Virus record (IMG/VR): IMGVR_UViG_3300028400_000004
Span: 1-64,000 of that record
Direction: 5' to 3' (one strand)
Source of the DNA: a virus
Length of the DNA: 64,000 bases
The translations under genes were made by a program, and so were the position numbers. Positions 2,585-49,898 of the stretch are shown piece by piece. Below the pieces are notes generated by a model, which made no database searches, was not told the DNA's origin, and worked only from the letters and a program-made list of their open reading frames with translations. Within the stretch, counting starts at the first letter, position 1; the number at the start of each line of letters is the position of its first letter.

Positions 2585-2971
2585 TTAGATAGAAATATCC
2601 CCATGGAAAAATTCGTTTTCCTGAAGATTTTTCAAAAAAGCATACAGGTGTTTCCGCGCAGTTTTTGCAGTTTTGTATGCTTGGTCGGAATCAGGGCGAT
2701 AAATAGTCCGGCCTTCCTTATCAAATACAACGCCCCGATAAATCCGTTCACCTTCCCAAGCGAACGGCAGGGATTCGACGATATAGAAAAAATCGCCGTA
2801 ATGTTCTGATTTTTGGTCGGCAGGAAAGATTCCTGCCTCAAGGATACGCGCATTAAAGAATTTTAGCGTATCGTCATCGACGTAATGGGTTCGGCCATTA
2901 AGCTGATCCTGCGCATAATCGACAGGACGGGAAAAATATTTTTCTTGATACTTTGTTCCTTTTCTAGCCAT
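2585..2971 (-). CDS. Hypothetical protein, 128 aa
   Basis: This soluble protein begins MARKGTKYQEKYFSRPVDYA and includes RTHYVDDDTLKFFNARI, GDFFYIVESL and RIYRGVVFDKEGRTIYRP. The Y-x-DDDT-x-x-FF-x-x-RI pattern resembles small uncharacterised phage and plasmid proteins, and I cannot name a function. It lacks membrane segments and Cys motifs. The gene is flanked by a hairpin on its 3' side, suggesting an independently tuned cistron. Confidence 0.6.
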   Translation of the reverse strand: MARKGTKYQEKYFSRPVDYAQDQLNGRTHYVDDDTLKFFNARILEAGIFPADQKSEHYGDFFYIVESLPFAWEGERIYRGVVFDKEGRTIYRPDSDQAYKTAKTARKHLYAFLKNLQENEFFHGDISI

Positions 2972-3076
2972 GGTTTTGATCCTCTTGGTTGGTTAATGAC
3001 TTTCCCTAATGGGCCATTATATGTTAGCAAGTTTCATGTTCGAATACAACATAAAAATTTTTATAAGGTTATAAAT

Positions 3077-3340
3077 TTATTTTCTATGTCGTCTTAAATA
3101 TCTGCGCCACGCTTTTCCATAGGGATATCGAACGCGGACTTGTACTTTCTTTTTAGTTTTTCTTGCAAGCTTTGCAGTTTCAATTAAATCTTTATGATAA
3201 TTCATTAGTTTTTCTTTAATTGTTTTGCCTTTATAATGTCGTAAATAGTGTTCCAACGCGGCATGATTATTTGGAGGGTTTTTAAGTAAATTTCTAACCC
3301 AAGCTGCATCTTGCAGTAGGATATGCATGGAACGGTTCAT
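3077..3340 (-). CDS. Basic hypothetical protein, 87 aa
   Basis: The C-terminal half is strongly basic (KLARKTKKKVQVRVRY, then AWRRYLRRHRK), suggesting nucleic-acid contact. The N-terminal half is helical. No family is recognised. A gap of about 105 bases separates it from the downstream gene. Confidence 0.5.
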   Translation of the reverse strand: MNRSMHILLQDAAWVRNLLKNPPNNHAALEHYLRHYKGKTIKEKLMNYHKDLIETAKLARKTKKKVQVRVRYPYGKAWRRYLRRHRK

Positions 3341-3358
3341 TGCATTATTCTCCGTTAT

Positions 3359-3685
3359 TTATATTAAGTTTAGTTTGAATTGCCCGTGATTTTCCAGAAT
3401 GATTTTATGCACAATGGGCATAATTGTTTCATCATCCCATTCAATGGGTTTATCCTTGTTAGTCAATCCTAAATATTTCCATGCTTGGCGTAATAAATTT
3501 GCTTTTTCTAATATTTCATTATCTACTAATATTCTGGTACTGAATTGCGCCAGACAAGAATATTCAGGAATTCCGTTAAACATTGCAAACGTTACGATCC
3601 AGTCGCTATTGTAATATTCGGCGACGATGCTAGTATCTTCAGAATCAATAATTTCTAGCTGATTGCCTTGCGGCTTAATGTTCAT
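3359..3685 (-). CDS. Hypothetical protein, 108 aa
   Basis: The protein is not recognised. It begins MNIKPQGNQLEIIDSEDTSI and alternates short strands with a C-terminal helix. Start 3685 is preferred to an in-frame codon at 3697 because GGGA lies upstream at a usable distance. It belongs to the same minus operon as its neighbours. Confidence 0.5.
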   Translation of the reverse strand: MNIKPQGNQLEIIDSEDTSIVAEYYNSDWIVTFAMFNGIPEYSCLAQFSTRILVDNEILEKANLLRQAWKYLGLTNKDKPIEWDDETIMPIVHKIILENHGQFKLNLI

Positions 3686-3708
3686 GATTTTTCCCATAAC
3701 GACAGGTT

Positions 3709-4008
3709 CTAAGAAACGATCGGTTCAATCAAACCTTGATCAATTGCTTGCTTAACCGTTTCTTGAAACGCTTTTTCATAATTGAAGGATGCACCGTTTT
3801 CTACCAAAAAATCAAGCATTTCTTCGATATAATCGGTGCCTGATTGGCTAATAAATTCATCGCTATCAAGCAAAATCCATTGCGCGATGAAGTTTTCAAC
3901 GGTTTCAGTATAATATCCATTAGAATATATAAATGAACCGTTATCATTAAGGTTATTAATAGCAGTTACAACGTCATCGATTGTATTCATGTCGGCAAAG
4001 TATTCCAT
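3709..4008 (-). CDS. Acidic hypothetical protein, 99 aa
   Basis: An acidic, mostly helical protein beginning MEYFADMNTIDDVVTAINNL, with no recognised motif or membrane segment. Small acidic early proteins are common among phage host-takeover factors, but nothing here proves that role. Confidence 0.55.
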   Translation of the reverse strand: MEYFADMNTIDDVVTAINNLNDNGSFIYSNGYYTETVENFIAQWILLDSDEFISQSGTDYIEEMLDFLVENGASFNYEKAFQETVKQAIDQGLIEPIVS

Positions 4009-4025
4009 AATTATATTCCTCTATT

Positions 4026-4289
4026 TTAGTCTTCAAGATATGTTTTTGCGTCCTTTTGATCCTGAATCAGAAAAAAATCAGATGGGCCGAATATTTTTCC
4101 GTCATCGCGTACGACGCGTGCGGTTCCGATACGAACACGCGGCCCATTGGATGGAAAAAGATCGATCGGGTTATGATATTTTTTCCATATTCGCCATGCA
4201 CCGATTGGCGTGCTTGCATGGCCTTTTTCGGCCCAGAAAAGGCGACCATGCTTGTCTGCGTTAGCGACTTGGATAGTGTATTTTGCCAT
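4026..4289 (-). CDS. Hypothetical protein, 87 aa
   Basis: Translation starts at MAKYTIQVANADKHGRLFWA, with GAGGAA upstream. A longer in-frame start (4346) would overlap the neighbour and is rejected. The sequence contains IGAWRIWKKYHNP and RVRIGTARVVRDDGKIFGP, suggesting a small beta-rich fold. Base composition is noticeably more GC-rich than the adjacent genes. No function is recognised. Confidence 0.55.
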   Translation of the reverse strand: MAKYTIQVANADKHGRLFWAEKGHASTPIGAWRIWKKYHNPIDLFPSNGPRVRIGTARVVRDDGKIFGPSDFFLIQDQKDAKTYLED

Positions 4290-4308
4290 GGTTATTTTTT
4301 CCTCAGAT

Positions 4309-4536
4309 TTATCTAGTAAAACAAGGATCAGAATTAAAAGTGGCATCGCTCCATTTATTATTGTTTTTCAATGCCAGTTTAATTCCGGTTTCTGACAAAA
4401 TAATAATCTTCGTGTTTTTATTTTTCTGATTCACGCTAGCAATTCGTTTTGCATCATGCAACGAATTTGCCTCAATTTTATAAGCTGGTGGAAAGGTTCC
4501 AGGTTTTGATATTTCAATTATTTGATAAATAGCCAT
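4309..4536 (-). CDS. Hypothetical protein, 75 aa
   Basis: This small protein begins MAIYQIIEISKPGTFPPAYK and continues with an alternating strand-helix pattern (NSLHDAKRIASVNQ, KIIILSETG). The layout recalls small phage proteins with a ferredoxin-like fold, but no family is recognised. A strong terminator separates it from the promoter-proximal gene. Confidence 0.5.
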   Translation of the reverse strand: MAIYQIIEISKPGTFPPAYKIEANSLHDAKRIASVNQKNKNTKIIILSETGIKLALKNNNKWSDATFNSDPCFTR

Positions 4537-4561
4537 GATTTTATTCCTCTTTTTAATAACT

Positions 4562-4595
4562 AAAACCCATGGGGGAATTTTCCCCCATGGGTTTT
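4562..4595 (-). terminator. Strong terminator after the first gene of the minus operon
   Basis: Long arms AAAACCCATGGGGGAA and TTCCCCCATGGGTTTT are followed on the minus strand by TTTTAGTTATT. It overlaps the stop codon of the 127-aa gene and would attenuate the rest of the operon. Confidence 0.8.
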
Positions 4596-4977
4596 ATTCG
4601 GTATCGCGTTCAATTTTGATTCCCGTTTCCTGTTCAAGGGAATCATAAAATTCTTTATCATAGGCCAGTTTGTGAGCGTACCATTCGACGGCCGTCCACA
4701 ATAATTCCCCTAAAGAGCGCGCGGGATATGCTTCCCCCGTAGTGTCTTCATATTCCGCCAAAAAATCGTCGATGGCGGACAGGTGGCGGGGAAGATAAAT
4801 AGAAAAGTCCATATGATGAATAAGGTTATAATCGAGCGGGAGACTGCAATTCGGCCCGTTGGCCGAATCCAGATAATAGGCGATAGCGGACTGCTTTGGT
4901 CTTTCACCGAAATAATTTTCTTCGAGTAGTTCGACAATATGCTCAAAAATATCATTAATGATAGTGTTTTTCTGCAT
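4594..4977 (-). CDS. Hypothetical protein, 127 aa, promoter-proximal
   Basis: An acidic soluble protein beginning MQKNTIINDIFEHIVELLEE and ending ETGIKIERDTE. It is helical throughout and no motif is recognised. It is the first gene behind the operator-overlapped promoter at 5014-5043 and is closed by a strong terminator, so it should be the most highly expressed gene of this operon. Confidence 0.55.
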   Translation of the reverse strand: MQKNTIINDIFEHIVELLEENYFGERPKQSAIAYYLDSANGPNCSLPLDYNLIHHMDFSIYLPRHLSAIDDFLAEYEDTTGEAYPARSLGELLWTAVEWYAHKLAYDKEFYDSLEQETGIKIERDTE

Positions 4978-5006
4978 TATCTTAATCCCCTTTTTGGTTT
5001 GCCTGT

Positions 5007-5043
5007 GGTCCTAATAGTAGGACCGCCTTTTGAATCATGTCAA
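5007..5043 (-). promoter_or_regulatory. Sigma70-type promoter with an inverted-repeat operator over the -10
   Basis: On the minus strand TTGACA (5038-5043) is followed 18 bases later by TACTAT (5014-5019). A perfect inverted repeat GGTCCTA-ATAG-TAGGACC (5007-5024) covers the -10 box. It points toward the gene ending at 4594 and the minus operon. The overlap suggests a repressor site. Confidence 0.6.
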
Positions 5044-5352
5044 GCCTTTTTGTCATGCTCGACACGATTATATCTAAGCATCGACAAGCCTAGACAATGC
5101 TATAGCCAAATACAAGTAAAAAGATTTTATGATGACGATTAAATTTATTTATGATCTGATTATTAAATAATCTGGCATGATTATTGTATAACATGCCTGG
5201 TTGGCATGATTGTATGACATGCCTAACTGGCATGATTAATGCATTATATATTAGAATTTGATAACATAATGTTACCCTGATTCGCCTGATTGTTATATAA
5301 TTATTTTATTATATAATTATTTTATTATATAAGAATTTTATTAATTACTAAT

Positions 5353-5368
5353 TGGCATGCTTGTTGCA
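5353..5368 (+). promoter_or_regulatory. TTGGCATG-N4-TTGCA promoter element, cassette 1
   Basis: TGGCATG-CTTG-TTGCA has the GG/GC spacing of a sigma54 -24/-12 promoter. The same bases can be read as a sigma70 promoter, TTGGCA then 17 bases then TACATA. Sequence alone does not decide. Downstream AATTCATTACATATAAGG is shared with 6059 and nearly with 7031. Confidence 0.5.
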
Positions 5369-5472
5369 ATTCATTACATATAAGGAGAAACCGGCTTTGG
5401 GCTTATTTGGTATGCTTTTTGTAAGCAAACTATTCAATAATTTTGTTTATACCCTTATAAAAAATTTTAGCA

Positions 5473-5500
5473 TTTACAAAGACCATGTTTGTGATATTCT
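5473..5500 (+). promoter_or_regulatory. Cassette 1 second promoter
   Basis: TTTACA, 16 bases, TATTCT with an extended -10 TGA. The block GTGATATTCTA followed by CTTGCCA is shared with cassette 2. The leader contains a TTGCCA-AACG-TGGCAA hairpin. Confidence 0.5.
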
Positions 5501-5544
5501 AGGCTTGCCAAACGTGGCAATAACCAGAACCAGGAGACAATATC

Positions 5545-5916
5545 ATGGAAAATTTAATTTTTTATAAGATTGACCAAATTCCTGAGGTTTTCGCCCCCGA
5601 AGCGGCTTATCTTGATGCCTCGGGATATGCCTTCGTCGGGGTCCTGAAGGGCTCTGATGGCATCATCAAGGCGGCAATATGGTTAGGCCGCCCGCCTACG
5701 CAATCAACCCACATCTTAACTGGCCCCGAGCCGGTTCGGTTCCCTACACGAGAGGGTGTACTTATCCCCATCTCGACGGGGGATACCGGCTGGAATCAAA
5801 TTCCCGCCTTAGTACTACCTGCCCGGTACGGGGCGACTATCGCCCCAGAATATAAGGTAGCCGCTCCGTATCAGGCTGCGCTCATCGAGGCATTTGAGCT
5901 TGGGGAGTTAGCTTAG
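5545..5916 (+). CDS. Cassette 1 GC-rich accessory protein, 123 aa
   Basis: The start is fixed by CAGGAGA 8 to 14 bases upstream of the ATG. The protein begins MENLIFYKIDQIPEVFAPEA and looks like a small beta-rich domain (YAFVGVLKGSDGIIKAAIWL; EGVLIPISTGDTGW). No family is recognised. It is clearly more GC-rich than its surroundings. Its mRNA includes perfect 7-bp stem-loops at 5763-5785 and 5830-5846, a mild form of the pattern in cassettes 3 and 4. It has its own promoters and terminator, so it behaves as an independent accessory cassette. Confidence 0.6.
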   Translation: MENLIFYKIDQIPEVFAPEAAYLDASGYAFVGVLKGSDGIIKAAIWLGRPPTQSTHILTGPEPVRFPTREGVLIPISTGDTGWNQIPALVLPARYGATIAPEYKVAAPYQAALIEAFELGELA

Positions 5917-5922
5917 TGCAGT

Positions 5923-5960
5923 AAACAACCCCTCGACGCTATTTTGTCGAGGGGTTGTTT
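5923..5960 (+). terminator. Cassette 1 terminator
   Basis: A 15-bp stem with core ACAACCCCTCGAC / GTCGAGGGGTTGT starts 7 bases after the stop codon and ends in TTTT. Confidence 0.85.
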
Positions 5961-6058
5961 TATGTCAGTATATTAGAGTTTAATAATATAATGTTAGTCT
6001 GATTTGCCTGATTGTTATATAATAATTTTATTATATAATAATTTTATTAATTACTAAT

Positions 6059-6074
6059 TGGCATGTTTGTTGCA
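6059..6074 (+). promoter_or_regulatory. TTGGCATG-N4-TTGCA promoter element, cassette 2
   Basis: TGGCATG-TTTG-TTGCA, or TTGGCA plus 17 bases plus TATATA if read as sigma70. It is nearly identical to the element at 5353. Confidence 0.5.
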
Positions 6075-6112
6075 ATTCATTATATATAAGGCTGATTGTC
6101 TTTAACATTAAT

Positions 6113-6128
6113 TGGCATAATTATTGCA
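6113..6128 (+). promoter_or_regulatory. Second -24/-12-like element, cassette 2
   Basis: TGGCATA-ATTA-TTGCA. This copy has no good -10 hexamer at 17 bases, so it favours the -24/-12 reading if it is functional. Confidence 0.4.
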
Positions 6129-6170
6129 TTATAAATTAGTCTTATTTATGGCATTATAAAAAATTTAATG

Positions 6171-6198
6171 TTTGTGTTGGTGGATTTTGTGATATTCT
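6171..6198 (+). promoter_or_regulatory. Cassette 2 second promoter
   Basis: TTTGTG, 16 bases, TATTCT. The GTTGGTGG spacer is shared with cassettes 3 and 4, and the -10 region with cassette 1. Confidence 0.5.
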
Positions 6199-6241
6199 AC
6201 ACTTGCCAATTCTGGAAATAGATAATTTGGGGGATAAGACA

Positions 6242-6460
6242 ATGGAAAATTCGCAAGTTAATGCTGCTATTCTTTCTGCGGAAGAAGCGGGGCGCGCCGT
6301 TGTTCGCTTCGGCGCCAATTTCTCGACAATCAAAGAAATATCCGAGTATTTCTACCATGAACTTGCTTATGGATATTGGGATGACATTATCCCAACAATA
6401 TCCGTAGAGCAAGCGCGTGATGCCTTTATCCAAGGCGTGATCGCCGAACAAAACAAATAA
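6242..6460 (+). CDS. Cassette 2 accessory protein, 72 aa
   Basis: The protein begins MENSQVNAAILSAEEAGRAV and is helical and acidic (IKEISEYFYHELAYGYWDD). No family is recognised. Start 6242 is preferred because GGGGGA lies upstream and MEN matches the cassette 1 start; an in-frame codon at 6203 lies in the leader. The mRNA holds an imperfect stem around GGATATTGGGAT and ATCCCAACAATATCC. It has its own promoters and terminator. Confidence 0.55.
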   Translation: MENSQVNAAILSAEEAGRAVVRFGANFSTIKEISEYFYHELAYGYWDDIIPTISVEQARDAFIQGVIAEQNK

Positions 6461-6465
6461 CATAC

Positions 6466-6492
6466 ATTCCCCCACAGATTTTGTGGGGGAAT
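6466..6492 (+). terminator. Cassette 2 terminator
   Basis: An 11-bp perfect stem ATTCCCCCACA / TGTGGGGGAAT with a 5-base loop, followed by TTTT. Confidence 0.85.
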
Positions 6493-7030
6493 TTTAATGC
6501 ATTATATATTAGAATTTAATAATATAATATTAATCTGATTCGCTTGATTACATGCTATGTCATACATGGCATGATTAATGCATGATACATTGATTTAATT
6601 AAATAATTATATAAGTATATTTTTATTTAATCATGGTCTGATTTATGCCTGATTGTTATATAGTTATATAGTAATATAATGCTGATCTGATTCATCTGAT
6701 TGAATATAATTATTTTATTATACGTTGATTAGCTAATACGCCTGATTAAATATTAGAATATAATAATGTAATTGATTCCTGATTCGCCTGATTGGCTATT
6801 AGCATTTAATTATATACTGATTAACTGATTAACTAACACGCCTGATTGGCTATTAGCGTTTTATTATATTTTAATAAAATAATATTATTAAATAATTATA
6901 TTAGAATATAAGAATAAACTTAAGTAACAATATTAGAATATAAAAGAATTTAGGCTCGAGTACATTCTAAAATAAGAATATGATAAAATTCTAATATAGT
7001 TTATTAATTAAATAGGCCAATTTTAGAGTT

Positions 7031-7107: not shown

Positions 7108-7173
7108 GTGTTGCGTTGGTGGGCGAGTATGTTATCCTAGACTGGCCAATGTAGGATCACACTAAGAGGAGGA
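7108..7173 (+). repeat. 66-bp promoter/leader repeat, copy 1
   Basis: Bases 7108-7173 are identical to 8068-8133. The block carries TTGCGT (7111-7116), 16 bases, TATCCT (7133-7138), then a leader ending in AAGAGGAGGA, a strong Shine-Dalgarno. The identity stops exactly before the differing start-codon contexts, so it works as a portable expression leader. Confidence 0.9.
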
Positions 7174-7177
7174 GGTC

Positions 7178-7675
7178 ATGATCTATCCCGCTACTGATCG
7201 TCACTTTGTGATCTTCGGCGGGTACTCGCCCGCCGTCATCTACGTCACCCCCGCGTGGGGTGACGACCTGGACCGCTTTTTTGCGCTCCAGTTCATCCCC
7301 GCTTGGGCGGTCCCCGCCCAGGTGGACCGCTACGGGAAGGTCCAGGCGGCCTTCCCTGACCCGGAGGGCCTACGACTGGCCTTCCGGTCGGCCCCTTACG
7401 GCCGGGGGCCGGAACGGGTCTCGGTCTTTTCGCCAGAGGGGGATCATCCCCTCTGGCGGGTTTTCGAATTGGACGGGGTCAATCCCCGTCCAATTCGCCA
7501 ATGGGTGGTCCGGGGACCCCGGACCACCCCCATGGCCCACCCCGAACCTCAGTCGGGGTGGGTCCCACCCACCGAATGGGGGCGCTCGACCCCCTATTGG
7601 GTCAGCCCGTCAGGGCTGACTTTCCCCCAAGACGTGCCCGACCACCGGCGGCCACATTGGTGGCCGCCGGTTTGA
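7178..7675 (+). CDS. Cassette 3 open frame, 165 aa, or structured RNA
   Basis: An ATG follows AGGAGGAGG, so translation is well supported. The first part, MIYPATDRHFVIFGGYSPAV, looks protein-like. The rest is Pro/Trp/Arg-rich (PHWWPPV at the end) and no family is recognised. The region is very GC-rich, and other frames on the same strand are also open, so frame length alone is weak evidence. Nearly the whole message folds into successive perfect stem-loops (see 7216-7711). It may encode a protein whose mRNA is structured, or act as RNA with incidental coding. Confidence 0.45.
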   Translation: MIYPATDRHFVIFGGYSPAVIYVTPAWGDDLDRFFALQFIPAWAVPAQVDRYGKVQAAFPDPEGLRLAFRSAPYGRGPERVSVFSPEGDHPLWRVFELDGVNPRPIRQWVVRGPRTTPMAHPEPQSGWVPPTEWGRSTPYWVSPSGLTFPQDVPDHRRPHWWPPV

Positions 7676-7711
7676 CCCGCACCCCGCCCCACCAGATTGG
7701 TGGGGCTGGGT
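7216..7711 (+). other. Array of about 15 consecutive stem-loops in cassette 3
   Basis: Inverted repeats in order: 7216-7235 (7 bp), 7243-7265 (9), 7302-7322 (9, one GU), 7323-7344 (6), 7348-7370 (8, one GU), 7374-7389 (6), 7389-7411 (7), 7431-7458 (11), 7465-7497 (14, perfect), 7503-7529 (12), 7536-7562 (10), 7575-7598 (8, one bulge), 7601-7620 (8), 7644-7671 (12), 7681-7711 (terminator). Stems differ in sequence and loops are 3 to 10 bases. Confidence 0.85.
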
Positions 7712-7714
7712 TTT
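7681..7714 (+). terminator. Cassette 3 terminator
   Basis: GCCCCACC / GGTGGGGC with loop AGATT, extended by CCC/GGG past one mismatch and followed by TTTT. Confidence 0.8.
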
Positions 7715-7947
7715 CTATTGGCCAGAATATTAGAATATGATAATATAATTGCAAATTTATGTATATTTTTAATTATATTATTATATTCTGATTAGTGCCT
7801 GATTGGCATGACTGATGCATAACATGCCTGATTGGCCTGATTGCGAAGCAACATGGCCATGATTGGCCTATATCTTGCATGGCCTGCTGGCTAGAATGGG
7901 TCTTAGAATCAGTCTAATAATCATTACTGCTATGCAGTAATGTTAAC

Positions 7948-7969
7948 AATAATCATTATCATTATCATT
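7948..7969. promoter_or_regulatory. Fur-box-like hexamer array
   Basis: The minus strand reads as three consecutive GATAAT-like hexamers (GATAATGATAATGATTATT), the classical Fur recognition pattern. It lies upstream of cassette 4, directly before a TGGCACG-CATT-GTGCA element (7969-7984) and after a 9-bp hairpin (7922-7942). Short AT-rich matches can arise by chance. Confidence 0.3.
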
Positions 7970-8067
7970 GGCACGCATTGTGCATACATGCACGAATTGT
8001 GCCATGCTGAGGATGGCATGGTGTTTGCTAAAAATAATATGAGTTTATGGCAGGATAAGAAATTTAT

Positions 8068-8133
8068 GTGTTGCGTTGGTGGGCGAGTATGTTATCCTAG
8101 ACTGGCCAATGTAGGATCACACTAAGAGGAGGA
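8068..8133 (+). repeat. 66-bp promoter/leader repeat, copy 2
   Basis: Identical to 7108-7173, at an offset of 960 bases. TTGCGT at 8071-8076, TATCCT at 8093-8098 and the Shine-Dalgarno at the end drive cassette 4. Confidence 0.9.
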
Positions 8134-8139
8134 TTCGTT

Positions 8140-8532
8140 ATGACCCGCCCCACTACCAAAATTCGTACCACCACCATCTCCACCAAGCTTGTCGTGCAGG
8201 AAATATTCCTGCACGACACAGGGGAGCGTCACGTCAAGGGCCGTTGGGCCCAGGTCGGCACATGGAAGTGCCGGCATATCTACGTCCGCCACGACGTGTG
8301 GCGGACCCTCCAAGGCCGCCCAAACCCCCCAACCCTCGTCCTTGAGGTCTTGGACCTCAGGGACGAAATCCTCAGGGCGTCCCTCTCAGGGGACGTGGGC
8401 CCCCTGACAGTCACCCGCAGGTCCGAGCGACGGCACATCGGTGGGCCGTCCTCCATGGCCACCGCCCAGGTCCAATGGTGGGACCTGGGCGGGGTCGTCG
8501 GGATCGGAGGGATACCGCCGTCCGATCCCTAA
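8140..8532 (+). CDS. Cassette 4 open frame, 130 aa, or structured RNA
   Basis: The ATG lies 8 bases after AGAGGAGGA of the repeated leader. The product starts MTRPTTKIRTTTISTKLVVQ and is basic and Arg-rich, with no family recognised and no similarity to the cassette 3 product. It is very GC-rich and several frames are open. As in cassette 3, the message is a chain of perfect inverted repeats, so RNA function or protein plus RNA structure both remain possible. Confidence 0.45.
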   Translation: MTRPTTKIRTTTISTKLVVQEIFLHDTGERHVKGRWAQVGTWKCRHIYVRHDVWRTLQGRPNPPTLVLEVLDLRDEILRASLSGDVGPLTVTRRSERRHIGGPSSMATAQVQWWDLGGVVGIGGIPPSDP

Positions 8533-8567
8533 CCAGCACCCCACCATGCCGAGCAGGCATGGTGGGG
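8190..8567 (+). other. Array of about 10 consecutive stem-loops in cassette 4
   Basis: Inverted repeats: 8190-8218 (13 bp, perfect), 8238-8251 (5), 8254-8275 (8, one GU), 8284-8306 (9, perfect), 8341-8361 (9, one GU), 8378-8395 (7, one GU), 8429-8450 (6), 8462-8492 (12, perfect), 8500-8529 (9, perfect), 8539-8567 (12, terminator). Arms are unrelated in sequence to those of cassette 3. Confidence 0.85.
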
Positions 8568-8570
8568 TTT
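8539..8570 (+). terminator. Cassette 4 terminator
   Basis: CCCCACCATGCC / GGCATGGTGGGG with loop GAGCA, then TTTCTTATT. Confidence 0.85.
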
Positions 8571-10084: not shown

Positions 10085-10567
10085 TTAGCTGATTAATGGC
10101 TTTCCATACATTATAGTGTGTAGGGTGTTTATTTTTTGTTTGAAGGATTCAGCCGCAAATATATAATAAGATGAGGTCGGAGGCATTTTGGTTAAATAGA
10201 TATATAATAGTAATGAAGATAATGGATAATAACGAAAAGTCTTATCTTGTTTAAGATTAAGCAATGATATGCTTATTATATAAAGAAATGCAAATCTGTT
10301 TGGTTTTGTAAATATCTCAAATGTATCTATAGAATAATTATATAATTCTGTGTATATAAAACACAAAGAAGGCACTATATGTAATCTGCCGTCACTTACA
10401 TAATAAGAAATGTTTTTATCATAAGATAGTGTCCTCAATTTTTTGATGAATAATGTGGTTAAGGGCCTTGGAAAATTGTCTGTTAATTCTTGGTAGTTAT
10501 TTATGTCATTATATAATTCGTATAACTCATGTAGTTCTGATTTGGTAGGTGTATAGTCAATAAACAT
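10085..10567 (-). CDS. Paralogous family member 2, 160 aa
   Basis: Members share an N-terminal segment of the type ELYxLYNDIxNYxxL, a middle strand region (here RLHIVPSLCFIY), a hydrophobic helix followed by LLxLK/D (ISISLLNLKQDK), and a C-terminal K-x-KI-x-x-L-x-xI-x-Y motif (ESFKQKINTLHTIMYG). No known family is recognised. It overlaps the start region of member 3 by 11 bases, so the genes are translationally linked. Confidence 0.65.
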   Translation of the reverse strand: MFIDYTPTKSELHELYELYNDINNYQELTDNFPRPLTTLFIKKLRTLSYDKNISYYVSDGRLHIVPSLCFIYTELYNYSIDTFEIFTKPNRFAFLYIISISLLNLKQDKTFRYYPLSSLLLYIYLTKMPPTSSYYIFAAESFKQKINTLHTIMYGKPLIS

Positions 10568-11075
10568 TTAATGTCTCATTAAATAATAAATTTAGCTGAC
10601 GGATTTTGTTTTTAAATGCATTAAATATTATACTAGTACAAGTAGATTGCCTTATACTATAATTTATGTTGTTTGCTTTATATGTTCTTTCTAATAAAGC
10701 GTACTCATTAAATATGATAACATCGTTTGCTATTTTACTTTGGGTATGGGTATATTCAAACAAACAAGTTGTAAGCATGTATAAAAATTGGAATTTTAAA
10801 TCTTTTTCATGTGAAAGCCTTTCCCAATTTATAATTGTATAAGCATTTAATTCTTTTATGTATATAAAATTTCTATGATAAAGATTGAAAACTATAATGT
10901 CATCCCTTAAATATAAAGGATCGCCATGCATTGTAGTATTTAATTGTTTTAGCTTGTTTGATAGAATTTTGATGAGTTTTTCATTATAAGTGTCCATAAG
11001 ATAATAGTATTTAAATATATCATTATAAATACTATAAATTTTAGGTATGTCGTCCTTATTGAAATCCACGAACAT
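10557..11075 (-). CDS. Paralogous family member 3, 172 aa
   Basis: It begins MFVDFNKDDIPKIYSIYNDI, close to the openings of members 2 and 5, and keeps the NTTMHGDPLYLRDD mid-segment and a C-terminal KNKIRQLNLLFNE. It is more diverged in the central hydrophobic helix (LYMLTTCLFEYTH). The function is unknown, and it is AT-rich like the rest of the operon. Confidence 0.65.
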   Translation of the reverse strand: MFVDFNKDDIPKIYSIYNDIFKYYYLMDTYNEKLIKILSNKLKQLNTTMHGDPLYLRDDIIVFNLYHRNFIYIKELNAYTIINWERLSHEKDLKFQFLYMLTTCLFEYTHTQSKIANDVIIFNEYALLERTYKANNINYSIRQSTCTSIIFNAFKNKIRQLNLLFNETLNVY

Positions 11076-11076
11076 T

Positions 11077-11307
11077 TTATTTGTTGAACGACAATGTAAC
11101 GCAAATTACACCACAATTTGTGGCAACCGTATGAATCCTAGAGACGCCGAATACGACGAAATCTCGTTTTTCCCTAGAATTTTCAGTGCAATAACAACTA
11201 TTTACCATGTCATAATAAAAAAGTTTGTTGCCGTAACCAACAAAATCACAAAAAGGATCGCGATCATTACAGGCAAATTCTGTATAAATCTGTAATGGAA
11301 ATAACAT
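11077..11307 (-). CDS. Cys-rich hypothetical protein, 76 aa
   Basis: The minus-strand frame has AAGGAAG just before the ATG and lies in the operon direction, ending one base before the member 3 start. The sequence contains scattered Cys (EFACNDRDPFCDF, SCYCTENSRE, NCGVICV) and no CxxC pair. A plus-strand frame across the same bases (11047-11295) lacks context and is rejected. No family is recognised. Confidence 0.45.
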   Translation of the reverse strand: MLFPLQIYTEFACNDRDPFCDFVGYGNKLFYYDMVNSCYCTENSREKRDFVVFGVSRIHTVATNCGVICVTLSFNK

Positions 11308-11325
11308 AACTTCCTTTTTGAAACC

Positions 11326-11559
11326 TTAAATTCCTATAAACCACGCATCATCATGAGCACCTATCCCGAATAGAAACTTATGTATTATAACTTCCTTTAC
11401 GTTAAATTGTTTGTTCAATTCTAAAAGAAAAGTATCAGAAAAATCTAAAACACTGATGGCAGGATTATCTTGAAATGGCTTTTTGTGTGTCCGTAATTGT
11501 ATTTCTGTGTCTGACAAGTAATCAACTAGGGCTTGGTAAATATCTTTATAGTTTTCCAT
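11326..11559 (-). CDS. Hypothetical protein, 77 aa
   Basis: The gene starts behind AGGAGCC and begins MENYKDIYQALVDYLSDTEI. It ends in FGIGAHDDAWFIGI, a short Gly/Trp-rich tail. It is soluble and acidic with no motif assigned, and sits between two paralogue-family genes. Confidence 0.5.
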   Translation of the reverse strand: MENYKDIYQALVDYLSDTEIQLRTHKKPFQDNPAISVLDFSDTFLLELNKQFNVKEVIIHKFLFGIGAHDDAWFIGI

Positions 11560-11588
11560 ATATTGGCTCCTAAAGAAGTAATAAGAAA

Positions 11589-12131
11589 TTATTTACTGTA
11601 CATGATTGATTTTAATTCGGTTATTTTTCTTTTTATATTTTTATACATGAAATCGTAATAAACATCAGCCGGCATAGTTAAATAATGATCAAAAACAATT
11701 TTATATAACCTATAAGAATCTACTGGATAAAATTCTTTTTTTGGATACTCTGAATCTTTTTTTATATCAAGTAAGCACATTGATAATATAAAGAAGAAAT
11801 AATTATCAAGTTCACTTTTATTTATACTTGTAAATAAATAATGGCCATCTATTCTTATACCAGTATCGTAGTATTCTACATGTTTTGAAAGGAAAGTTGG
11901 CGCAAAATAGACACTATCATTCGATATTATTAGTATATCACGATGCAAATTTGCATTTAATGTGGTAATATCTGTTAATAGTGTATCCACCAACACTCTA
12001 TTTTGTCCGTTAAGTAGGGTTTGGTAATTATATAAATCTATAAATTTGTTATATAACTCAATAATTTGTTTTTTCGTCGGTAATGTGTCTATAAAAATGT
12101 CTTTAGGGGTCATTGGTTTAATCCTAAACAA
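11589..12131 (-). CDS. Paralogous family member 4, 180 aa
   Basis: The clearest representative of the family: IIELYNKFIDLYNYQTLLNG, LLTDITTLNANLHRDILII, SVYFAPTF, FFFILSMCLLDIKKD, then KNIKRKITELKSIMY. Its N-terminus (MFRIKPMTPKDIFIDTLPTK) is slightly longer than in the others, and the ATG at 12113 is a possible alternative start. It directly abuts the methyltransferase gene. Likely helical; function unknown. Confidence 0.65.
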   Translation of the reverse strand: MFRIKPMTPKDIFIDTLPTKKQIIELYNKFIDLYNYQTLLNGQNRVLVDTLLTDITTLNANLHRDILIISNDSVYFAPTFLSKHVEYYDTGIRIDGHYLFTSINKSELDNYFFFILSMCLLDIKKDSEYPKKEFYPVDSYRLYKIVFDHYLTMPADVYYDFMYKNIKRKITELKSIMYSK

Positions 12132-12812
12132 TCAATCACTGAACGCAAGTGTGATAAGTGCCGTTGCCGCCACAATTGGAACTTGTCCGTTTCCAATGCA
12201 GCGAAATCTATCCATCCTATGGGCCATCCCATTAACCATTCTTCCGTTTCTGGGATTCTCCGCCCAAACACTTTGGTATGATTTTTGCAACTTTTCCATT
12301 TCTGCATAGATGGTGCATTGTAATTTGCTTTTGTCGTCGGCGTATGCAAGTAACCAATATCTTCTCCGAACGTGGTCACTACCCAAGTCTTTCGCGGAAA
12401 GGGAAATACCTTGGACTTTGTAACCCAGCCCAGCCAAATCCCTTCCTGCATGTTCAATCGCGTTCTTGCTGACATTTTCAGCAAAGACATACCATGGGGC
12501 GACTTCTCGTACGATTCGGAGCATTTCTGGCCACAAGTCTTCTGCAACTTTTCTGCCTCTACTTGCACTAGAAAATGCCTGGCACGGATAACCGCCCGAA
12601 ATGATATCCACAAGTCCTTCCCAACGTCTTCCATCAAATTCTTTGACATTTTCAAAGATTGGGAAAGGTGGCAAATGGCCTTCGTTTTGCCGCATAAGCA
12701 CAATGTTCCTGGCGTATTCGTTGATTTCAACACCGCATACTGGATGGATACCGACCAATGTGGAGGCCAAAATGCCTCCACCGCAGCCTGTGAAAAGTGA
12801 TAGTTCATTCAT
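12132..12812 (-). CDS. DNA (cytosine-5-)methyltransferase
   Basis: This 226-residue protein has the C5-methyltransferase motifs in order: SLFTGCGGG (motif I, AdoMet loop), GGYPCQAFS (motif IV with the catalytic Cys), FAENV (motif VI), VRRRYWLLA (motif VIII) and IGNGQVP (motif X). It is short for the class, with a compact target-recognition region, so specificity cannot be read. AAAGGAG precedes the ATG. No cognate restriction enzyme is seen. It probably protects phage DNA or alters host methylation. It is more GC-rich than its neighbours, suggesting separate acquisition. Confidence 0.9.
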   Translation of the reverse strand: MNELSLFTGCGGGILASTLVGIHPVCGVEINEYARNIVLMRQNEGHLPPFPIFENVKEFDGRRWEGLVDIISGGYPCQAFSSASRGRKVAEDLWPEMLRIVREVAPWYVFAENVSKNAIEHAGRDLAGLGYKVQGISLSAKDLGSDHVRRRYWLLAYADDKSKLQCTIYAEMEKLQKSYQSVWAENPRNGRMVNGMAHRMDRFRCIGNGQVPIVAATALITLAFSD

Positions 12813-12827
12813 TTGCTCTCCTTTATC

Positions 12828-13616
12828 TTATATAAATAATTTTTTCATCGCAGCTTGTTGCTGTCTTTTAGTCAAATCATCGATAGAGACTAAGCTTGAA
12901 CCATTATTATATAGAATATAACGCAAGGAAGGTTTTACATACTTTATATCATATTCCCCATATAAAAACTTACAATTATCAACTACATAATGGTCTAGGT
13001 TTACTTTAGATTTTTTTATTAAAGTATTTAATTGCCTTTTGTAAAAATCATTAAAAAATGAGGGGCTATAATGCGAAGATAATAATTCTTCATTATCCAA
13101 AATACTTAAATAATAAGTACTAGTATAAACCTTTCTATATATATTTTTATCAGCCAAACTTAAGAATAAAAATGTATATAAGTCATATTTATTTATTTTA
13201 TTATCAAAAAACGAATAAGAAAAAGCTGTTGTATTTACCAGACAAACAAAAAATGCTTTTCTCATTTTTTGCTTTTTTAACAAGTCTTTATATCTATTTT
13301 TATTATAAAACAGTGCATACAAAAGTAATATATACTTATTATACTCAGAATACATTTTAACTTTATTAGAAATTATAAGCCTCAAATACATCTCCAAATC
13401 AAAAGTATTCAAAAATTCAACAAATATTTCATAATATTCTTGTTTATTGTATCCATCCCTGTATAAAATGCAAAAAGGCTCATTTTTAATTGTTTTTTTA
13501 AACTCAAAAATGTCTAGTTTGTTCGTATTTAAACAAAAATGCATCTTCGCGATTTCTTTACGAACGTTTCTATCATTCACACAAAATAAAAAATTTGATA
13601 GTCTGAAAGTACACAT
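12828..13616 (-). CDS. Hypothetical protein, 262 aa
   Basis: A Lys/Tyr/Phe-rich AT-biased protein starting MCTFRLSNFLFCVNDRNVRK behind AAGGAGC. It is helical, with no transmembrane or catalytic motif recognised. It ends LTKRQQQAAMKKLFI. It sits in the paralogue-family operon but does not show the family signature by eye. It could be a longer relative or an independent gene. Confidence 0.55.
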   Translation of the reverse strand: MCTFRLSNFLFCVNDRNVRKEIAKMHFCLNTNKLDIFEFKKTIKNEPFCILYRDGYNKQEYYEIFVEFLNTFDLEMYLRLIISNKVKMYSEYNKYILLLYALFYNKNRYKDLLKKQKMRKAFFVCLVNTTAFSYSFFDNKINKYDLYTFLFLSLADKNIYRKVYTSTYYLSILDNEELLSSHYSPSFFNDFYKRQLNTLIKKSKVNLDHYVVDNCKFLYGEYDIKYVKPSLRYILYNNGSSLVSIDDLTKRQQQAAMKKLFI

Positions 13617-13641
13617 AAAAGCTCCTTAAAATATTGTCACA

Positions 13642-14139
13642 TCAACTAACAACAATCGAATGTAATTGCTCTATTTTATATTTTATCAACTCAGCAAACC
13701 CCGTATAGTAACTGTTTTTATCATTCATAAATATAATTAGATAAATAAGATTAAAAGAAGTGGGGCGGGCAACTTGAACACCTTTCTCTGATTTTATATC
13801 CAATAAACAAATGGAAGTCAATAGAAGAAAAGTGTTGATATAAGGCTGGCTAAAACGTTCATTATAATAATATAAATTTGTATAAAGTATGCTTGAATAC
13901 TTATTACCATTATATACAATAAGATTAAGCCCAATGGTAGGGCTAAAATATAATATGTTGTTCTGGATTATTAAAACGTTTTTTGGTAATTTATTATTTA
14001 TGCTTCTTAAAGAAGCAATTAAATCATCTACTAAGCCTTTGTTATACACCCCTACAAGTAAATAATATTCATAAATATTAACAAATAGCTGGTATGCAAA
14101 GTCTAAGTGTTCTTTGTCTGGCAACTTATCCATAAACAT
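13642..14139 (-). CDS. Paralogous family member 5, 165 aa
   Basis: It carries all family landmarks: FAYQLFVNIYEYYLLVGVYN, SINNKLPKNVLIIQNNILYF, SPTIGLN, LLLTSICLLDIKSE and LIKYKIEQLHSIV. It begins MFMDKLPDKEHL, parallel to members 2 and 3. It overlaps member 6 by one base. Function unknown. Confidence 0.65.
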   Translation of the reverse strand: MFMDKLPDKEHLDFAYQLFVNIYEYYLLVGVYNKGLVDDLIASLRSINNKLPKNVLIIQNNILYFSPTIGLNLIVYNGNKYSSILYTNLYYYNERFSQPYINTFLLLTSICLLDIKSEKGVQVARPTSFNLIYLIIFMNDKNSYYTGFAELIKYKIEQLHSIVVS

Positions 14140-14660
14140 TATAAAAGTTCATTATAAATTTTATATATTTTAGGTTTTACTATATTAACTATTTTATGGT
14201 ATAATGTGTTGCTACAACTAGTAACTTTAGTTAAATGATCTATCAAAAAACTAATACTTATAATTTTATAATCAACATTTTTATTTCTAATAACCATACA
14301 AGACGAAAAATAAAGTAATATTGCGAACTCAAGTTTTATATCTTTACAGCGAAATCCTTGACAAAAATAATCAGAAAACGCTATATAAATATTATCCTCT
14401 TTTAGATTTACATAAGCATTACCATCAAAAGTTATATTGAAAAAGAGATTATTATTGGATTCATATAATACAAAAGGAGAAATTATAGAATCATTCATTT
14501 CCATTAGTATTTTATTAAACTTTAATAATAGTTCTGATGAATAAACTTCAAGTATTTCCCGATATTTATGAATATCAACATACAGCTTGCATAATTCCTC
14601 TATATAATAGTTATTTACATCAATATTCGAACTCATAATAAAATCTCTATAAAAAATCAA
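14139..14660 (-). CDS. Paralogous family member 6, 173 aa
   Basis: A diverged member: ELCKLYVDIHKYREILEVYS and ILLYFSSCMVIRNKN correspond to the N-terminal and hydrophobic segments, and IVKPKIYKIYNELL to the C-terminal motif. It is packed between members 5 and 7 with one-base spacing on each side. Confidence 0.6.
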   Translation of the reverse strand: MIFYRDFIMSSNIDVNNYYIEELCKLYVDIHKYREILEVYSSELLLKFNKILMEMNDSIISPFVLYESNNNLFFNITFDGNAYVNLKEDNIYIAFSDYFCQGFRCKDIKLEFAILLYFSSCMVIRNKNVDYKIISISFLIDHLTKVTSCSNTLYHKIVNIVKPKIYKIYNELL

Positions 14661-14661
14661 A

Positions 14662-15228
14662 TCAAAAATACTTTGTTATATTGAACAAACATTTATACAT
14701 ATGAGTAAATTCCCTCAATATTTCTTTAGGAATATATCTATCATATTGTTTATTAAAAACGATTGACTTATATATAAGATTAAAAAATAACTCTCCTTCT
14801 CCAAATATAATATCTCTTTTAAGTGTTTTTCTTTCTTTATAATACTTACATAAAGATATGACCAAAATAAACGGAAATTCATATACAATGTCTCTTATTT
14901 TTCCTTGTTCATATACAATAGTACTATATCCATAAACTTTATAATATGTAGCATCGTACCTAAAAAGACTATAAAGAATTTTAGTGGAAAGACTTAAACA
15001 ATTAATCCCATTTGTCTCATAAGTAACACATTCCATACCAAACACATTATTGTAATAATTAAAACTGTCCAACAACTTATTATCTACATCATTCGTTAAA
15101 ATATAATAATTATACAACGCTAGATAAGCATTATACATTTCCTTTATAAAGGAAATGTCTTCAACAAGTTCTATCTTTTTCTTATCAATCCAATCATTTT
15201 CTGCCAGTCGATCCAAATCCATTTTCAT
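14662..15228 (-). CDS. Paralogous family member 7, 188 aa
   Basis: The longest member, with an added acidic N-terminus (DLDRLAENDWIDKKKIELVE) before MYNAYLALYNYYILTNDVDN, the family opening. It retains FPFILVISLCKYYKERK. Its start overlaps the end of dut by 35 bases, so it was probably appended to an existing dut gene. Confidence 0.6.
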   Translation of the reverse strand: MKMDLDRLAENDWIDKKKIELVEDISFIKEMYNAYLALYNYYILTNDVDNKLLDSFNYYNNVFGMECVTYETNGINCLSLSTKILYSLFRYDATYYKVYGYSTIVYEQGKIRDIVYEFPFILVISLCKYYKERKTLKRDIIFGEGELFFNLIYKSIVFNKQYDRYIPKEILREFTHMYKCLFNITKYF

Positions 15229-29939: not shown

Positions 29940-30292
29940 TGACAAAAGAAGAATGGCTACAACAAGCATTATATACACCATATATCCATAACAAAGAACA
30001 ATTAAGGATAGGCTTTGACTGCTTTGGATTAATAAAAAATTATTACAAGAATGTTCTTGGAATTAAATTAAATAATGATTTATTGAAAATGAAAAATATG
30101 TTTATAAAAAAGTTTGCCCCAAAAAACAATGGAGATATACTAATACTACATGGAAAACCAACACATGCAGTATTATATTGGGGTGAAGGACTATGTTTAC
30201 ACATAACAAGTAGTACTATTTATCCTGTATTTGAAAGACTGACAAATCCAGAAATAAAAAATTACAGAGCAGTATATGCGAAAAAACACTAA
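29936..30292 (+). CDS. NlpC/P60-type tail tip peptidase, gpK-like
   Basis: A 118-aa protein. GFDCFGLIKNYYKN holds the catalytic Cys and KPTHAVLYWGEG the His of the NlpC/P60 fold. The fold cleaves peptidoglycan peptides, and in tails it helps cell-wall penetration. It is smaller than lambda gpK, keeping only the peptidase domain. It overlaps the tail-tip gene by 17 bases. Confidence 0.8.
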   Translation: MMTKEEWLQQALYTPYIHNKEQLRIGFDCFGLIKNYYKNVLGIKLNNDLLKMKNMFIKKFAPKNNGDILILHGKPTHAVLYWGEGLCLHITSSTIYPVFERLTNPEIKNYRAVYAKKH

Positions 30293-33200
30293 AGTTTTAA
30301 TTTATAATAATCCACTAGAAAAGGTTACAGACACAGTCATATACTGCAAGCCTGGATTTTGTATTAATGATCTTAATATAAATAAAGATAATTATATTTT
30401 CTATGTTAATGGGAAGCCTTGTGACTTTGACTACAAATTGAAAGCTGAAGACATTTTATCAATTTATGTATTACCTAAAGATACAAATAATACTTATGTA
30501 AGGCAAGGTATTAAATTAGCTGCTGTATTGGCCGTTGCATCTTTAACCCAAAATTGGGTCGCCGGATGGAAAATGGCCGCATTATTATCAACCAATTTAA
30601 TAGCAAATTATTTACTGCCAGATTTGCCATTAGATGAAACAACACCGGAAGAGTTACTTAGTGGAACACTAACAGAGCCAAAAGAAGGTCTTAGGATTCC
30701 AAAAATATTTGGAAATGTTCATTTCACACCGCCAATGGCTGCACGTCCTCATTTGAACCCTGGATCAGGAAATGACGCTAGTATTGTATACTGCGTAGCT
30801 TTAGGATATGGGCCACTAGACTTAGTAGGAACATCCACTAGCCTGCAGCTTAGTGGTACTAGAACGACTCCACATACTATAAACGATATACCGGATGGAT
30901 CAATTACACTGGGTGGTACAGATATAAAGCAAGCTAAAGGTGTGGAAATAGAAATAGGTGATCCAAACACTTTTTCTATCTATGATGAATTAGTATATGA
31001 CCAAGTAGTCAATTTTTCATATACAAGAACGAACGGTGTTGAAGATAATTGGACACCGGATAATGTAGAGCATATACAAACTATGGGGGTAGCTGGTAAA
31101 AATATCACTATAAATATACACTTTCCTAGTGGATTATACACAAAAGGCGGAGATAATAAAGTAAATAAGCGGTTCCAAGATATAGTTGAGTTTCAAATTC
31201 AATATAAAAAATCAACAGACACTACTTGGACTTCATTTAACTTACCCTCTAAATTTTTAGATTATAGTTATCCAGACTCAACAAAAGGATGGATATATGG
31301 AGGAAAAACAAAACCATTTTGGGTTAAAATAAATTTAGAATTACCTACAGAAGATATTTATGACATAAAATTAGTAAGAATAAGAACTCACACAGGAGAT
31401 AGTGAAGTAGTACGCGCTACATTCGTATGGGAAACCTTGGTAATAACTAAGTCCGGACAACCAATAAAACAATTATATTCCCCTAAAGTTGATAGTGGTG
31501 AAGAACCAATATGGATGGCTATCAAAGTAAAAGGAAAAGATAGAATAAAATCAGCTTATGATCTAAAGGTTAATCTAGGCGGTTACTGCTTTAATGGAGC
31601 AACAAAAGTAAGAACCCAATCTCCTGCCTTAGCAGCTTTAGAAATATTAACAACGTCTGTCAATAAGAATAGAGTTGACCCTTCAAAAATAGACATAAAT
31701 AGTTTTACTTCCTGGGATAGTTGGTGCTCGTCAGTAGGATATACATTTAATACTGCATATTATAAAGACGAAACACTAAAGTCTGTATTGGATGACGCCA
31801 GCCGTGCTGGATTAGGGCGGGTAATCATTACTGACCAAGGATTCAGGGCTGTATATGATGCGGGTGCTGCAAATGCTACGCCAACCCAAATATTCACACC
31901 TCGTAATTCTTGGAACTTTTCTGCTACACAATCAGCAGATAAAATTCCTGATGCCGTAAAATTAATGTATCTAAATGAGGATACTGCAACCCAAGATTCT
32001 GTCATTGTTTATAATACTGGATATGACGAGAGTACAGCTTTTGATATAACCGATTATAGTTTTAGAGGTATTACTACCCATGATCATGCCGCTAGTATTG
32101 CTTCATTTTTATTAAATACCGCCAATTTACGACCTACTACATATAAATTTATAACCACAATTGAAGCGTTACGCAGTATTGTTGGTGACAAAGTTAAATT
32201 ACAACATGATAGCATTGCAGTAGGATATGGATCGGGTCGTGTAATAGAAACAACCACATCAGCAGGAAATATTACTGCTGTTAGACTGGATGAACGCATT
32301 GTATTAGGGGGCGCCACTTCTGGAGACAATTCTATTCTATTTAGAGCTAGTGACGGCGTAGTTTATATTTCCCAAATACAAGAATTTAATGTAGAAACAG
32401 ATACTTTTACATTATCTAATCCTATAAGTGATACTGTTAACTTATTAGATGCTATAGCTACTGTAGGAAAAACATCGCAAGAAACTATAGATTTAGTTAT
32501 AAGCGATATTGAATATTCTAACGACTTTTCAGCTACAATTACTGGATTTGATGCTGCACCTGAAGTACATAATCATACAGGCAGAATACCACCTTATACA
32601 CCGCCAGCATATTTACCTCCAAATATAGAACAACTAACTCCACCAACGCCAAGTATTGTTAGTGCCTTTGCTTCAATAGAAGATAGTGACGTATTGCCGG
32701 ATGGAACACCTTTAGCAGAGCTAAAAGCATTATTCAAGTCAGCAGACAATTCTGTACCTGTTGAAAAAATAGAAGTACAGGTTTGGGCAGATTCTTCTGT
32801 AGATAGCCAAGCACAACCTATTACTTATGTAATTGATCCATGGGAAGGTTTAAGTGTAAAAGTAAACTTCGATGATAATATTTATTTAAGGGCTAGAAGC
32901 GTAAGTCCGTACGGTAAAACTTCTGATTGGACGGATTTACAAACAATTACCCCTACATGGACATGGCCGCCAGGTGCTGTTACTAATTTACAAATTGAAA
33001 ATTTTGATGACAAAATAAAACTATCATGGGATAAGCACGAAAGACCTTCTGTAAAAGAATATGAAATAAGACGTGGAACATCTTGGTCAACTGCTACAGT
33101 TTTAGGCAGAACTACAGATACATTTTTTATTGATTATGCACAAGGTGTAGGAAATACTACTTATTTGGTCGCACCTATTGATAGTACAACGAATGAAGTC

Positions 33201-49027: not shown

Positions 49028-49139
49028 TCGTCTAGTAACTTTTCTAATAAAATCAATAACTTATGGTTTTGAGTTTACTCAAACTCAAGACACACTTATC
49101 CTTAAATCCCTTTAACTCTGGCCACGTAGCCATTTTATT

Positions 49140-49310: not shown

Positions 49311-49319
49311 GTCACTCCG

Positions 49320-49864: not shown

Positions 49865-49869
49865 TAGCA

Positions 49870-49898
49870 ACAATAGCACATGCAAATACGCTTGTCAA
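49870..49898 (-). promoter_or_regulatory. Consensus promoter for the noncoding locus
   Basis: Minus strand TTGACA (49893-49898), 17 bases, TATTGT (49870-49875), directed leftward into the structured region. Confidence 0.7.

What the first reader, a model, noticed from the sequence alone, without database searches (positions are those of the whole stretch)
7178..8570. Two accessory cassettes made almost entirely of consecutive perfect stem-loops
Cassettes 3 and 4 contain about 15 and 10 successive inverted repeats (up to 14 bp perfect) with short loops, each different in sequence, covering most of their transcribed length. They are expressed by an identical 66-bp promoter/leader and end in strong terminators. 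Chance GC-richness would not give tandem perfect arms with 3- to 10-base loops. They may be structured RNAs that also translate, decoys, nuclease-resistant messages, or remnants of repeated inverted duplication. I know of no described family with this layout.
Basis: partly seen in the sequence, partly recalled or inferred. Interest (0 to 1): 0.85.

Follow-up and report, generated by a model that had tools for sequence, protein, structure and literature searches.

The report
Two phage genes built from hairpins
Two small, apparently translated accessory genes of an AT-rich uncultivated phage are written almost entirely as back-to-back perfect hairpins, far more than chance, GC-rich composition or codon choice can explain, and nothing like them was found in any database searched, so how they arose and what they do is open.

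Summary
ORFs 7178-7675 (165 codons) and 8140-8532 (130 codons) of an 83.7-kb, 33% GC phage record are chains of short perfect hairpins. They contain 11 and 6 non-overlapping perfect stems of at least 7 bp, the longest 14 and 13 bp. Fold energy is z -10 and -6.5 below synonymous-codon shuffles. The sequence in perfect arms is 418 and 290 nt/kb, against at most 128 in any other gene of the window. GC-rich phages reach at most a third of the cassette 3 peak, and structured ssRNA-phage genes reach 0-78 nt/kb. A GC-rich stretch in the same genome shows nothing.

Both ORFs sit behind an identical 66-nt promoter-leader with a strong Shine-Dalgarno, look coding (G+C differs by codon position), and end at terminators. 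They have no detectable relatives, so covariation could not be tested. Neither strand is preferred, stems are nearly all Watson-Crick, and in cassette 3 the amino acids themselves have been bent to make stems.

I favour palindromes made and kept perfect by replication template switching in expressed accessory genes (confidence 0.4). The rival is selection for a nuclease- or guide-shielded message (0.3). A single genome cannot decide between them.

The parts
7108..7173 (+). Promoter/leader of cassette 3: extended -10 (TGTTATCCT at about 7130-7138), motif TATCCTAGACTGGCCAA (7133-7149), ends in SD AGAGGAGGA
   Evidence: Identical 66-mer found only at 7108 and 8068; core motif exact at only four places in the window, one per cassette
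7178..7675 (+). Cassette 3 ORF, 165 aa, GC 67%, GC3 0.77
   Evidence: GC differs by codon position p=1.1e-4; no relatives
7216..7411 (+). First half of hairpin array 3: perfect stems at 7216-7235, 7243-7265, 7304-7320, 7334-7356, 7389-7411, plus 7361-7387 with one G-T mismatch
7431..7562 (+). Core of hairpin array 3: perfect stems of 11, 14, 12 and 10 bp (7431-7458, 7465-7497, 7503-7529, 7536-7562) separated by 5-6 nt
7601..7671 (+). Last hairpins inside ORF 3: 8 bp (7601-7620) and 12 bp (7644-7671); the latter ends 1 nt before the TGA
7681..7711 (+). Terminator of cassette 3
8068..8133 (+). Promoter/leader of cassette 4, identical to 7108-7173
8140..8532 (+). Cassette 4 ORF, 130 aa, GC 65%, GC3 0.81
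   Evidence: codon-position p=4.9e-6; no relatives
8190..8529 (+). Hairpin array 4: 8190-8218 (13 bp), 8256-8273 (6 bp), 8284-8306 (9 bp), 8336-8366 (14 bp, one mismatch), 8386-8407 (7 bp), 8462-8492 (12 bp), 8500-8529 (9 bp, 12 with one mismatch; ends directly before the TAA)
8538..8568 (+). Terminator of cassette 4 (13-bp perfect stem)
5495..5960 (+). Cassette 1: same promoter motif, ORF 5545-5916 (123 aa), 15-bp terminator stem 5923-5960; not significantly hairpin-rich
6193..6492 (+). Cassette 2: same promoter motif, ORF 6242-6460 (72 aa), terminator stem 6466-6492; not significantly hairpin-rich

Best explanation
Cassettes 3 and 4 are two unrelated, translated accessory genes, each with its own host-type (sigma-70-like) promoter, strong ribosome-binding site and terminator. 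Their DNA has been rewritten into a chain of short perfect palindromes. I propose that the stems were created and kept perfect by short-range template switching during phage DNA replication: the nascent strand folds back, copies one arm from the other, and homogenises it. This acted on both synonymous and amino-acid-changing positions, while selection kept the frame open and the start region usable. The resulting mRNA is a beads-on-a-string of hairpins, which may have been kept because it does no harm or because it shields the message. Shown: the hairpins, their non-randomness, coding-like codon structure, identical leaders, strand symmetry, and stem formation at amino-acid-determined positions in cassette 3. 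Inferred: the template-switching mechanism, expression, translation, and any benefit.
For: Stems are almost entirely Watson-Crick: 4 mismatched positions in roughly 200 extended-stem pairs, 2 of them G-T. Sense and antisense fold similarly far from codon shuffles (z -9.6/-6.0 against -7.7/-5.5), with G-U pairs 18 sense against 22 antisense, so there is no sense-strand signature. Genuine RNA-structured coding sequences (MS2, Qbeta, PP7) reach similar z (-1.6 to -11.2) with imperfect stems, 0-78 nt/kb in perfect arms, against 418 and 290 here. Perfection, not stability, is the odd feature, and single-event perfect stems are what template switching makes (PMC8794818; coding-gene cases in yeast, PMC8604942). 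In cassette 3, stems in the register that needs amino acids to match (codon positions 1-2) are possible in the actual protein more often than in 200 residue-permuted proteins (8 against mean 0.95, 0/200). Hairpins therefore also shaped the protein. The arms, loops and ORFs show no common motif or significant similarity. An independent hairpin array in the same phage (48.5-49.05 kb) shows paired changes at 6 of 12 base pairs with no one-sided intermediate in five copies.
Against: A genome-wide replication process should mark other genes, yet another GC-rich stretch of this phage has no excess, and cassettes 1 and 2 with the same promoter type do not either. Something specific to these two loci is needed. 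No ancestor or relative exists in the data, so no switching event can be reconstructed. Strand symmetry is weak evidence, because selection for very stable stems also yields mostly G-C pairs. Cassette 4 shows the amino-acid effect only in one register and weakly (4/200).
Confidence: 0.4

Rival explanations
1. Armoured message: the hairpin chain is selected at the RNA level. Early accessory mRNAs made of consecutive 7-14-bp stems offer almost no single-stranded RNA to RNase E-type, toxin or RNA-guided nucleases, yet each stem is too short to be a good RNase III substrate. Ribosomes start at an exposed SD and unwind the stems as they go.
For: Fold z under synonymous shuffles is in the range of ssRNA-phage genes, a known case of structured coding RNA. 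The arrays start 38 and 50 nt after the start codon and end directly before the stop codon; the cassette 4 start region is 0.62-0.63 unpaired against 0.23-0.49 downstream. The two hairpin ORFs share one leader. T4 precedents exist: secondary structure protects mRNA from RegB and masks RNase LS sites (PMC3014915).
Against: No sense-strand preference, no stable-tetraloop preference, stems far more perfect than in RNA-selected coding sequences. The cassette 3 start region is not clearly open (0.43-0.45). No RNA data.
Confidence: 0.3
2. RNA is the product: the transcripts are non-coding decoys or regulators (for example sponges for a double-stranded-RNA sensor or RNA-binding protein) and the ORF is incidental.
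For: The amino-acid sequences have no relatives, AlphaFold confidence from single sequences is low (mean pLDDT 52 and 40), and stems shaped the cassette 3 protein. Diverse structured phage RNAs with no sequence homology but predicted hairpins can engage bacterial sensors (cabRNA, PMC10686824).
Against: Canonical SD plus ATG at matching places, an ORF filling the unit in both, G+C asymmetry by codon position (p=1e-4 and 5e-6). No shared loop or stem motif. No Rfam family at gathering score.
Confidence: 0.13
3. The DNA itself is the functional form: arrays of short cruciform-prone palindromes act as a landing or decoy site for a structure-specific protein (the phage carries a RuvC-like resolvase at 239-808 and SbcC/D-like genes) or as a recombination hot spot that diversifies the encoded proteins.
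For: Strand symmetry and perfect Watson-Crick arms; resolvase family match.
Against: The arrays are confined to transcribed ORFs with promoter, SD and terminator, and do not run through the intergenic DNA. Short arms with 3-12-nt loops extrude poorly as cruciforms (general knowledge). No population data.
Confidence: 0.1
4. Ordinary foreign GC-rich genes, or a sequencing or assembly artefact, happen to look hairpin-rich.
For: The ORFs have GC3 0.77-0.80 in a phage whose other genes are mostly near 0.25, suggesting a foreign or host-like origin.
Against: GC-rich phages (TM4, phiC31, BgVeeders33) peak at 66 nt of perfect arm per 500 nt against 208 here. Codon and dinucleotide shuffles do not reproduce it. 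Amplification chimeras would give long inverted copies, not about 20 different 7-14-bp ones with open frames and intact signals.
Confidence: 0.05

Closest known systems
Template-switch-generated hairpins (Monttinen and Loytynoja, PNAS 2022, PMC8794818; Abraham and Hazkani-Covo 2021, PMC8604942)
   Same: Perfect reverse-complement arms with short loops; arms change together; can occur in coding genes and alter several neighbouring amino acids
   Different: Described as isolated events reconstructed from relatives; here about 20 in a row in two small genes, with no ancestor to reconstruct an event from
Leviviricetes (MS2, Qbeta, PP7) structured coding RNA
   Same: Coding sequence folds far better than synonymous shuffles (z -1.6 to -11.2)
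   Different: Their stems are imperfect and partly long-range (0-78 nt/kb in perfect arms against 418 and 290); these cassettes are dsDNA-phage genes
cabRNA of staphylococcal phages (PMC10686824)
   Same: Phage RNA from a coding region folding into hairpins; different phages' RNAs share no sequence
   Different: Produced from terminase genes and active as a trigger of CBASS; no evidence of any such activity here
Phage accessory ('moron') genes with own promoter and terminator
   Same: Four autonomous promoter-SD-ORF-terminator units side by side; orphan small ORFs
   Different: Ordinary morons have no hairpin saturation; cassettes 1 and 2 of this locus are examples

Membership tests
Autonomous phage accessory (moron-type) gene | Own promoter, RBS and terminator around a non-core ORF | tested here: met
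   Motif TATYCTANRCTKGCCAA once per cassette; terminators; orphan ORFs
Autonomous phage accessory (moron-type) gene | Sporadic presence among related phages | tested here: inconclusive
   The only relatives found are fragments (IMG/VR, best MCP segments 39-64% identical), and the four searched lack the motif
Template-switch hairpin | Perfect or near-perfect Watson-Crick arms, short loop | tested here: met
Template-switch hairpin | Arm in one lineage is the reverse complement of the other arm while the ancestor differs | not testable with these tools
   No homologue or variant was found
RNA-selected structured coding sequence (Leviviricetes-like) | Fold energy well below synonymous shuffles | tested here: met
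   z -10.2 and -6.6, comparable to MS2/Qbeta/PP7
RNA-selected structured coding sequence (Leviviricetes-like) | Imperfect, partly long-range stems as in MS2/Qbeta/PP7 | tested here: not met
   418 and 290 nt/kb in perfect arms against 0-78
RNA-selected structured coding sequence (Leviviricetes-like) | Conserved pairs with compensatory change | not testable with these tools
   No homologues
cabRNA / structured trigger or decoy RNA | Binds and activates (or titrates) a host sensor | not testable with these tools
   Needs biochemistry
Known Rfam families | Score above the gathering threshold | tested here: not met
   (only sub-threshold hits)

The most novel reading that the evidence does not exclude
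A phage gene type in which the whole coding sequence is, by selection, a string of autonomous perfect hairpins: a self-shielding message for early counter-defence proteins, hidden from single-strand nucleases and RNA guides. The same promoter-leader would act as a plug-in expression module for such armoured ORFs.
Probability: 0.25. Interest if true: 0.9.

Novelty: new variant of a known kind. Interest (0 to 1): 0.6.

Why it matters
If the stems are selected, this would be a natural armoured mRNA and a new way for phages to protect early messages. If they are mutational, two genes caught in mid-rewriting would be an unusually clear natural case of template switching reshaping proteins. Either way the coding sequence is far more palindromic than any control examined here, including ssRNA phage genes known for structure.

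Tried and rejected
Homologues: viral-contig scans for all four cassette proteins, genome contigs for cassette 4, tblastn of cassettes 3 and 4 against phages and plasmids, and Pfam, PHROGs, PADLOC and PDB gave no significant relative. The weak PHROG_36329 hit to cassette 4 (E 0.019) and the E2-glycoprotein and Streptomyces hits to cassette 3 (E 0.015 and 0.05) are at chance or composition level and were not used.

The exact 27-nt promoter core does not occur in other viral contigs. Relatives by major capsid protein are fragments; the four searched lack the motif, and the stretches scanned have no hairpin cluster. A genome-contig scan with the capsid alignment to find a host found nothing.

Fold search with the cassette 4 model gave nothing (best E 0.72 in PDB and 0.054 in BFVD); the model is too poor to interpret.

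Shared-ancestry test of ORFs 3 and 4: no similarity. Cassettes 1 and 2 looked mildly structured against dinucleotide shuffles (z -3.1 and -4.5) but not by perfect stems under codon shuffles, so I do not extend the claim to them.

A stem-register test gave 9:6:3 over 18 stems, not significant by itself; the permuted-protein version is the informative one. A whole-window folding scan timed out and was replaced.

Full report
What was checked. The window is bases 1-64,000 of an 83,753-base virus record, 33% GC in the window, with a siphophage-like gene set (major capsid protein best match Burkholderia phage at 46%; DnaB-type helicase best match Edwardsiella phage ZHS at 36%). Four small autonomous units lie at 5.5-8.6 kb. 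Each has one exact copy of the motif TATYCTANRCTKGCCAA, found nowhere else in the window without mismatch, nor elsewhere in the record within two mismatches, then an ORF and a terminator-like stem. Cassettes 3 and 4 share an identical 66-nt leader ending in AGAGGAGGA, but their ORFs have no similarity.

The hairpins are real and not chance. Perfect stems of 7-14 bp with 3-12-nt loops follow each other through both ORFs, in the core of array 3 only 5-6 nt apart. MFE is 12.7 and 9.5 standard deviations below dinucleotide shuffles and 10.2 and 6.6 below synonymous-codon shuffles. In perfect-arm content, no codon shuffle of 200 reaches either ORF, and the two ORFs stand at 418 and 290 nt/kb while the next gene of 57 tested has 128. 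Controls: the GC-rich part of the 2283-aa tail protein (35.0-36.0 kb, GC3 0.69) shows z 0 to -2; about 1.1 Mb of phage loci have at most 2 stems of 9 bp or more within 600 nt, against 7 here; GC-rich phages TM4, phiC31 and BgVeeders33 peak at 66 nt of perfect arm per 500 nt against 208. So neither GC content, codon choice, nor phage origin explains it.

The ORFs look translated. Both have a canonical SD and ATG, fill the unit to within a few bases of the terminator, and G+C differs by codon position as in coding DNA (0.69/0.55/0.77 and 0.63/0.51/0.80; p = 1.1e-4 and 4.9e-6). Other plus-strand frames carry only 1-3 stops each, so open length alone would be weak evidence. The arrays begin 38 and 50 nt after the start codon and end directly before the stop. 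The proteins have no relatives, and single-sequence structure predictions are poor.

What made the stems. Three facts bear on this. First, there is no sense-strand signature: antisense folds are similarly extreme, and G-U pairs are 18 sense and 22 antisense. Second, ssRNA-phage genes, a recognised case of structure-selected coding RNA, have similar z-scores but 0-78 nt/kb in perfect arms. It is the perfection, not the stability, that is unusual here. Third, in cassette 3 stems exist in the register where codon positions 1 and 2 must match, which synonymous choice mostly cannot provide; the actual protein permits 8 such arms of at least 9 bp against a mean of 0.95 in residue-permuted proteins (0/200). 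Hairpin formation therefore overrode the protein sequence in part. These facts fit template switching, which creates or repairs perfect arms in single events (PMC8794818, PMC8604942). An independent array in the same phage (48.5-49.05 kb) has paired changes at 6 of 12 pairs with no one-sided intermediate in five copies. Against a purely mutational account stands the restriction to two loci.

Function. If selected, the most sensible role is a message with almost no single-stranded RNA, shielded from single-strand-specific nucleases or guides; T4 provides precedents for structure protecting mRNA (PMC3014915). That stems of 7-14 bp are poor RNase III substrates is general knowledge, not tested. 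A decoy role akin to cabRNA (PMC10686824) has no specific support: loops and stems share no motif and no Rfam family matches at gathering score.

Verdict. I rate it a new variant (hairpin-saturated coding sequence) of known kinds (accessory phage genes; template-switch or structured coding RNA), with a minority chance that it is a new strategy.

Noticed in passing
window 48499-49051: Five copies, 114-136 b apart, of a two-part hairpin (GTTA...TAAC outer stem; 7-bp inner stem with loop TTC). All 60 pair cells are paired and 6 of 12 pairs show changes on both sides. Most units are followed by an AAGGAGA motif, without an obvious ORF. Probably a structured RNA or DNA regulatory array upstream of the sigma-factor-like ORF 50075-50794; no Rfam match at gathering score.
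   Followed up: partly
window 49300-50040: About 700 bases with no ORF of at least 130 aa, containing GC-rich stems, between the divergent gene blocks; one 200-b window just before it (from 49201) has fold z -5.9 on + and -9.1 on -. Possible large non-coding RNA.
   Followed up: no
window 10085-15228 (-): Family of six paralogous 160-190-aa ORFs, 18-23% identical to the first, AT-rich; the two searched (10557-11072 and 14662-15228) have no PHROG match.
   Followed up: no
window 34900-36100 within ORF 30276-37127: Segment of a tail protein with GC3 0.69 in an otherwise AT-rich gene, looking like a recent foreign insertion; used here as a GC-rich control.
   Followed up: partly
L084 (record 74501-83753) 2638-5978: Four phage tRNA genes, Thr-TGT, Arg-TCT, Lys-TTT and Leu-CAA, mostly reading AT-rich codons; this would fit a GC-richer host and contrasts with the GC3-rich cassettes.
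   Followed up: no
window 5170-5260, 6060-6130, 6560-6600, 7800-7880: Recurrent TGGCATGATTnnTGCAT / GCCTGATTGG words in the AT-rich DNA upstream of the cassette promoters, possibly operator or UP-element repeats.
   Followed up: no
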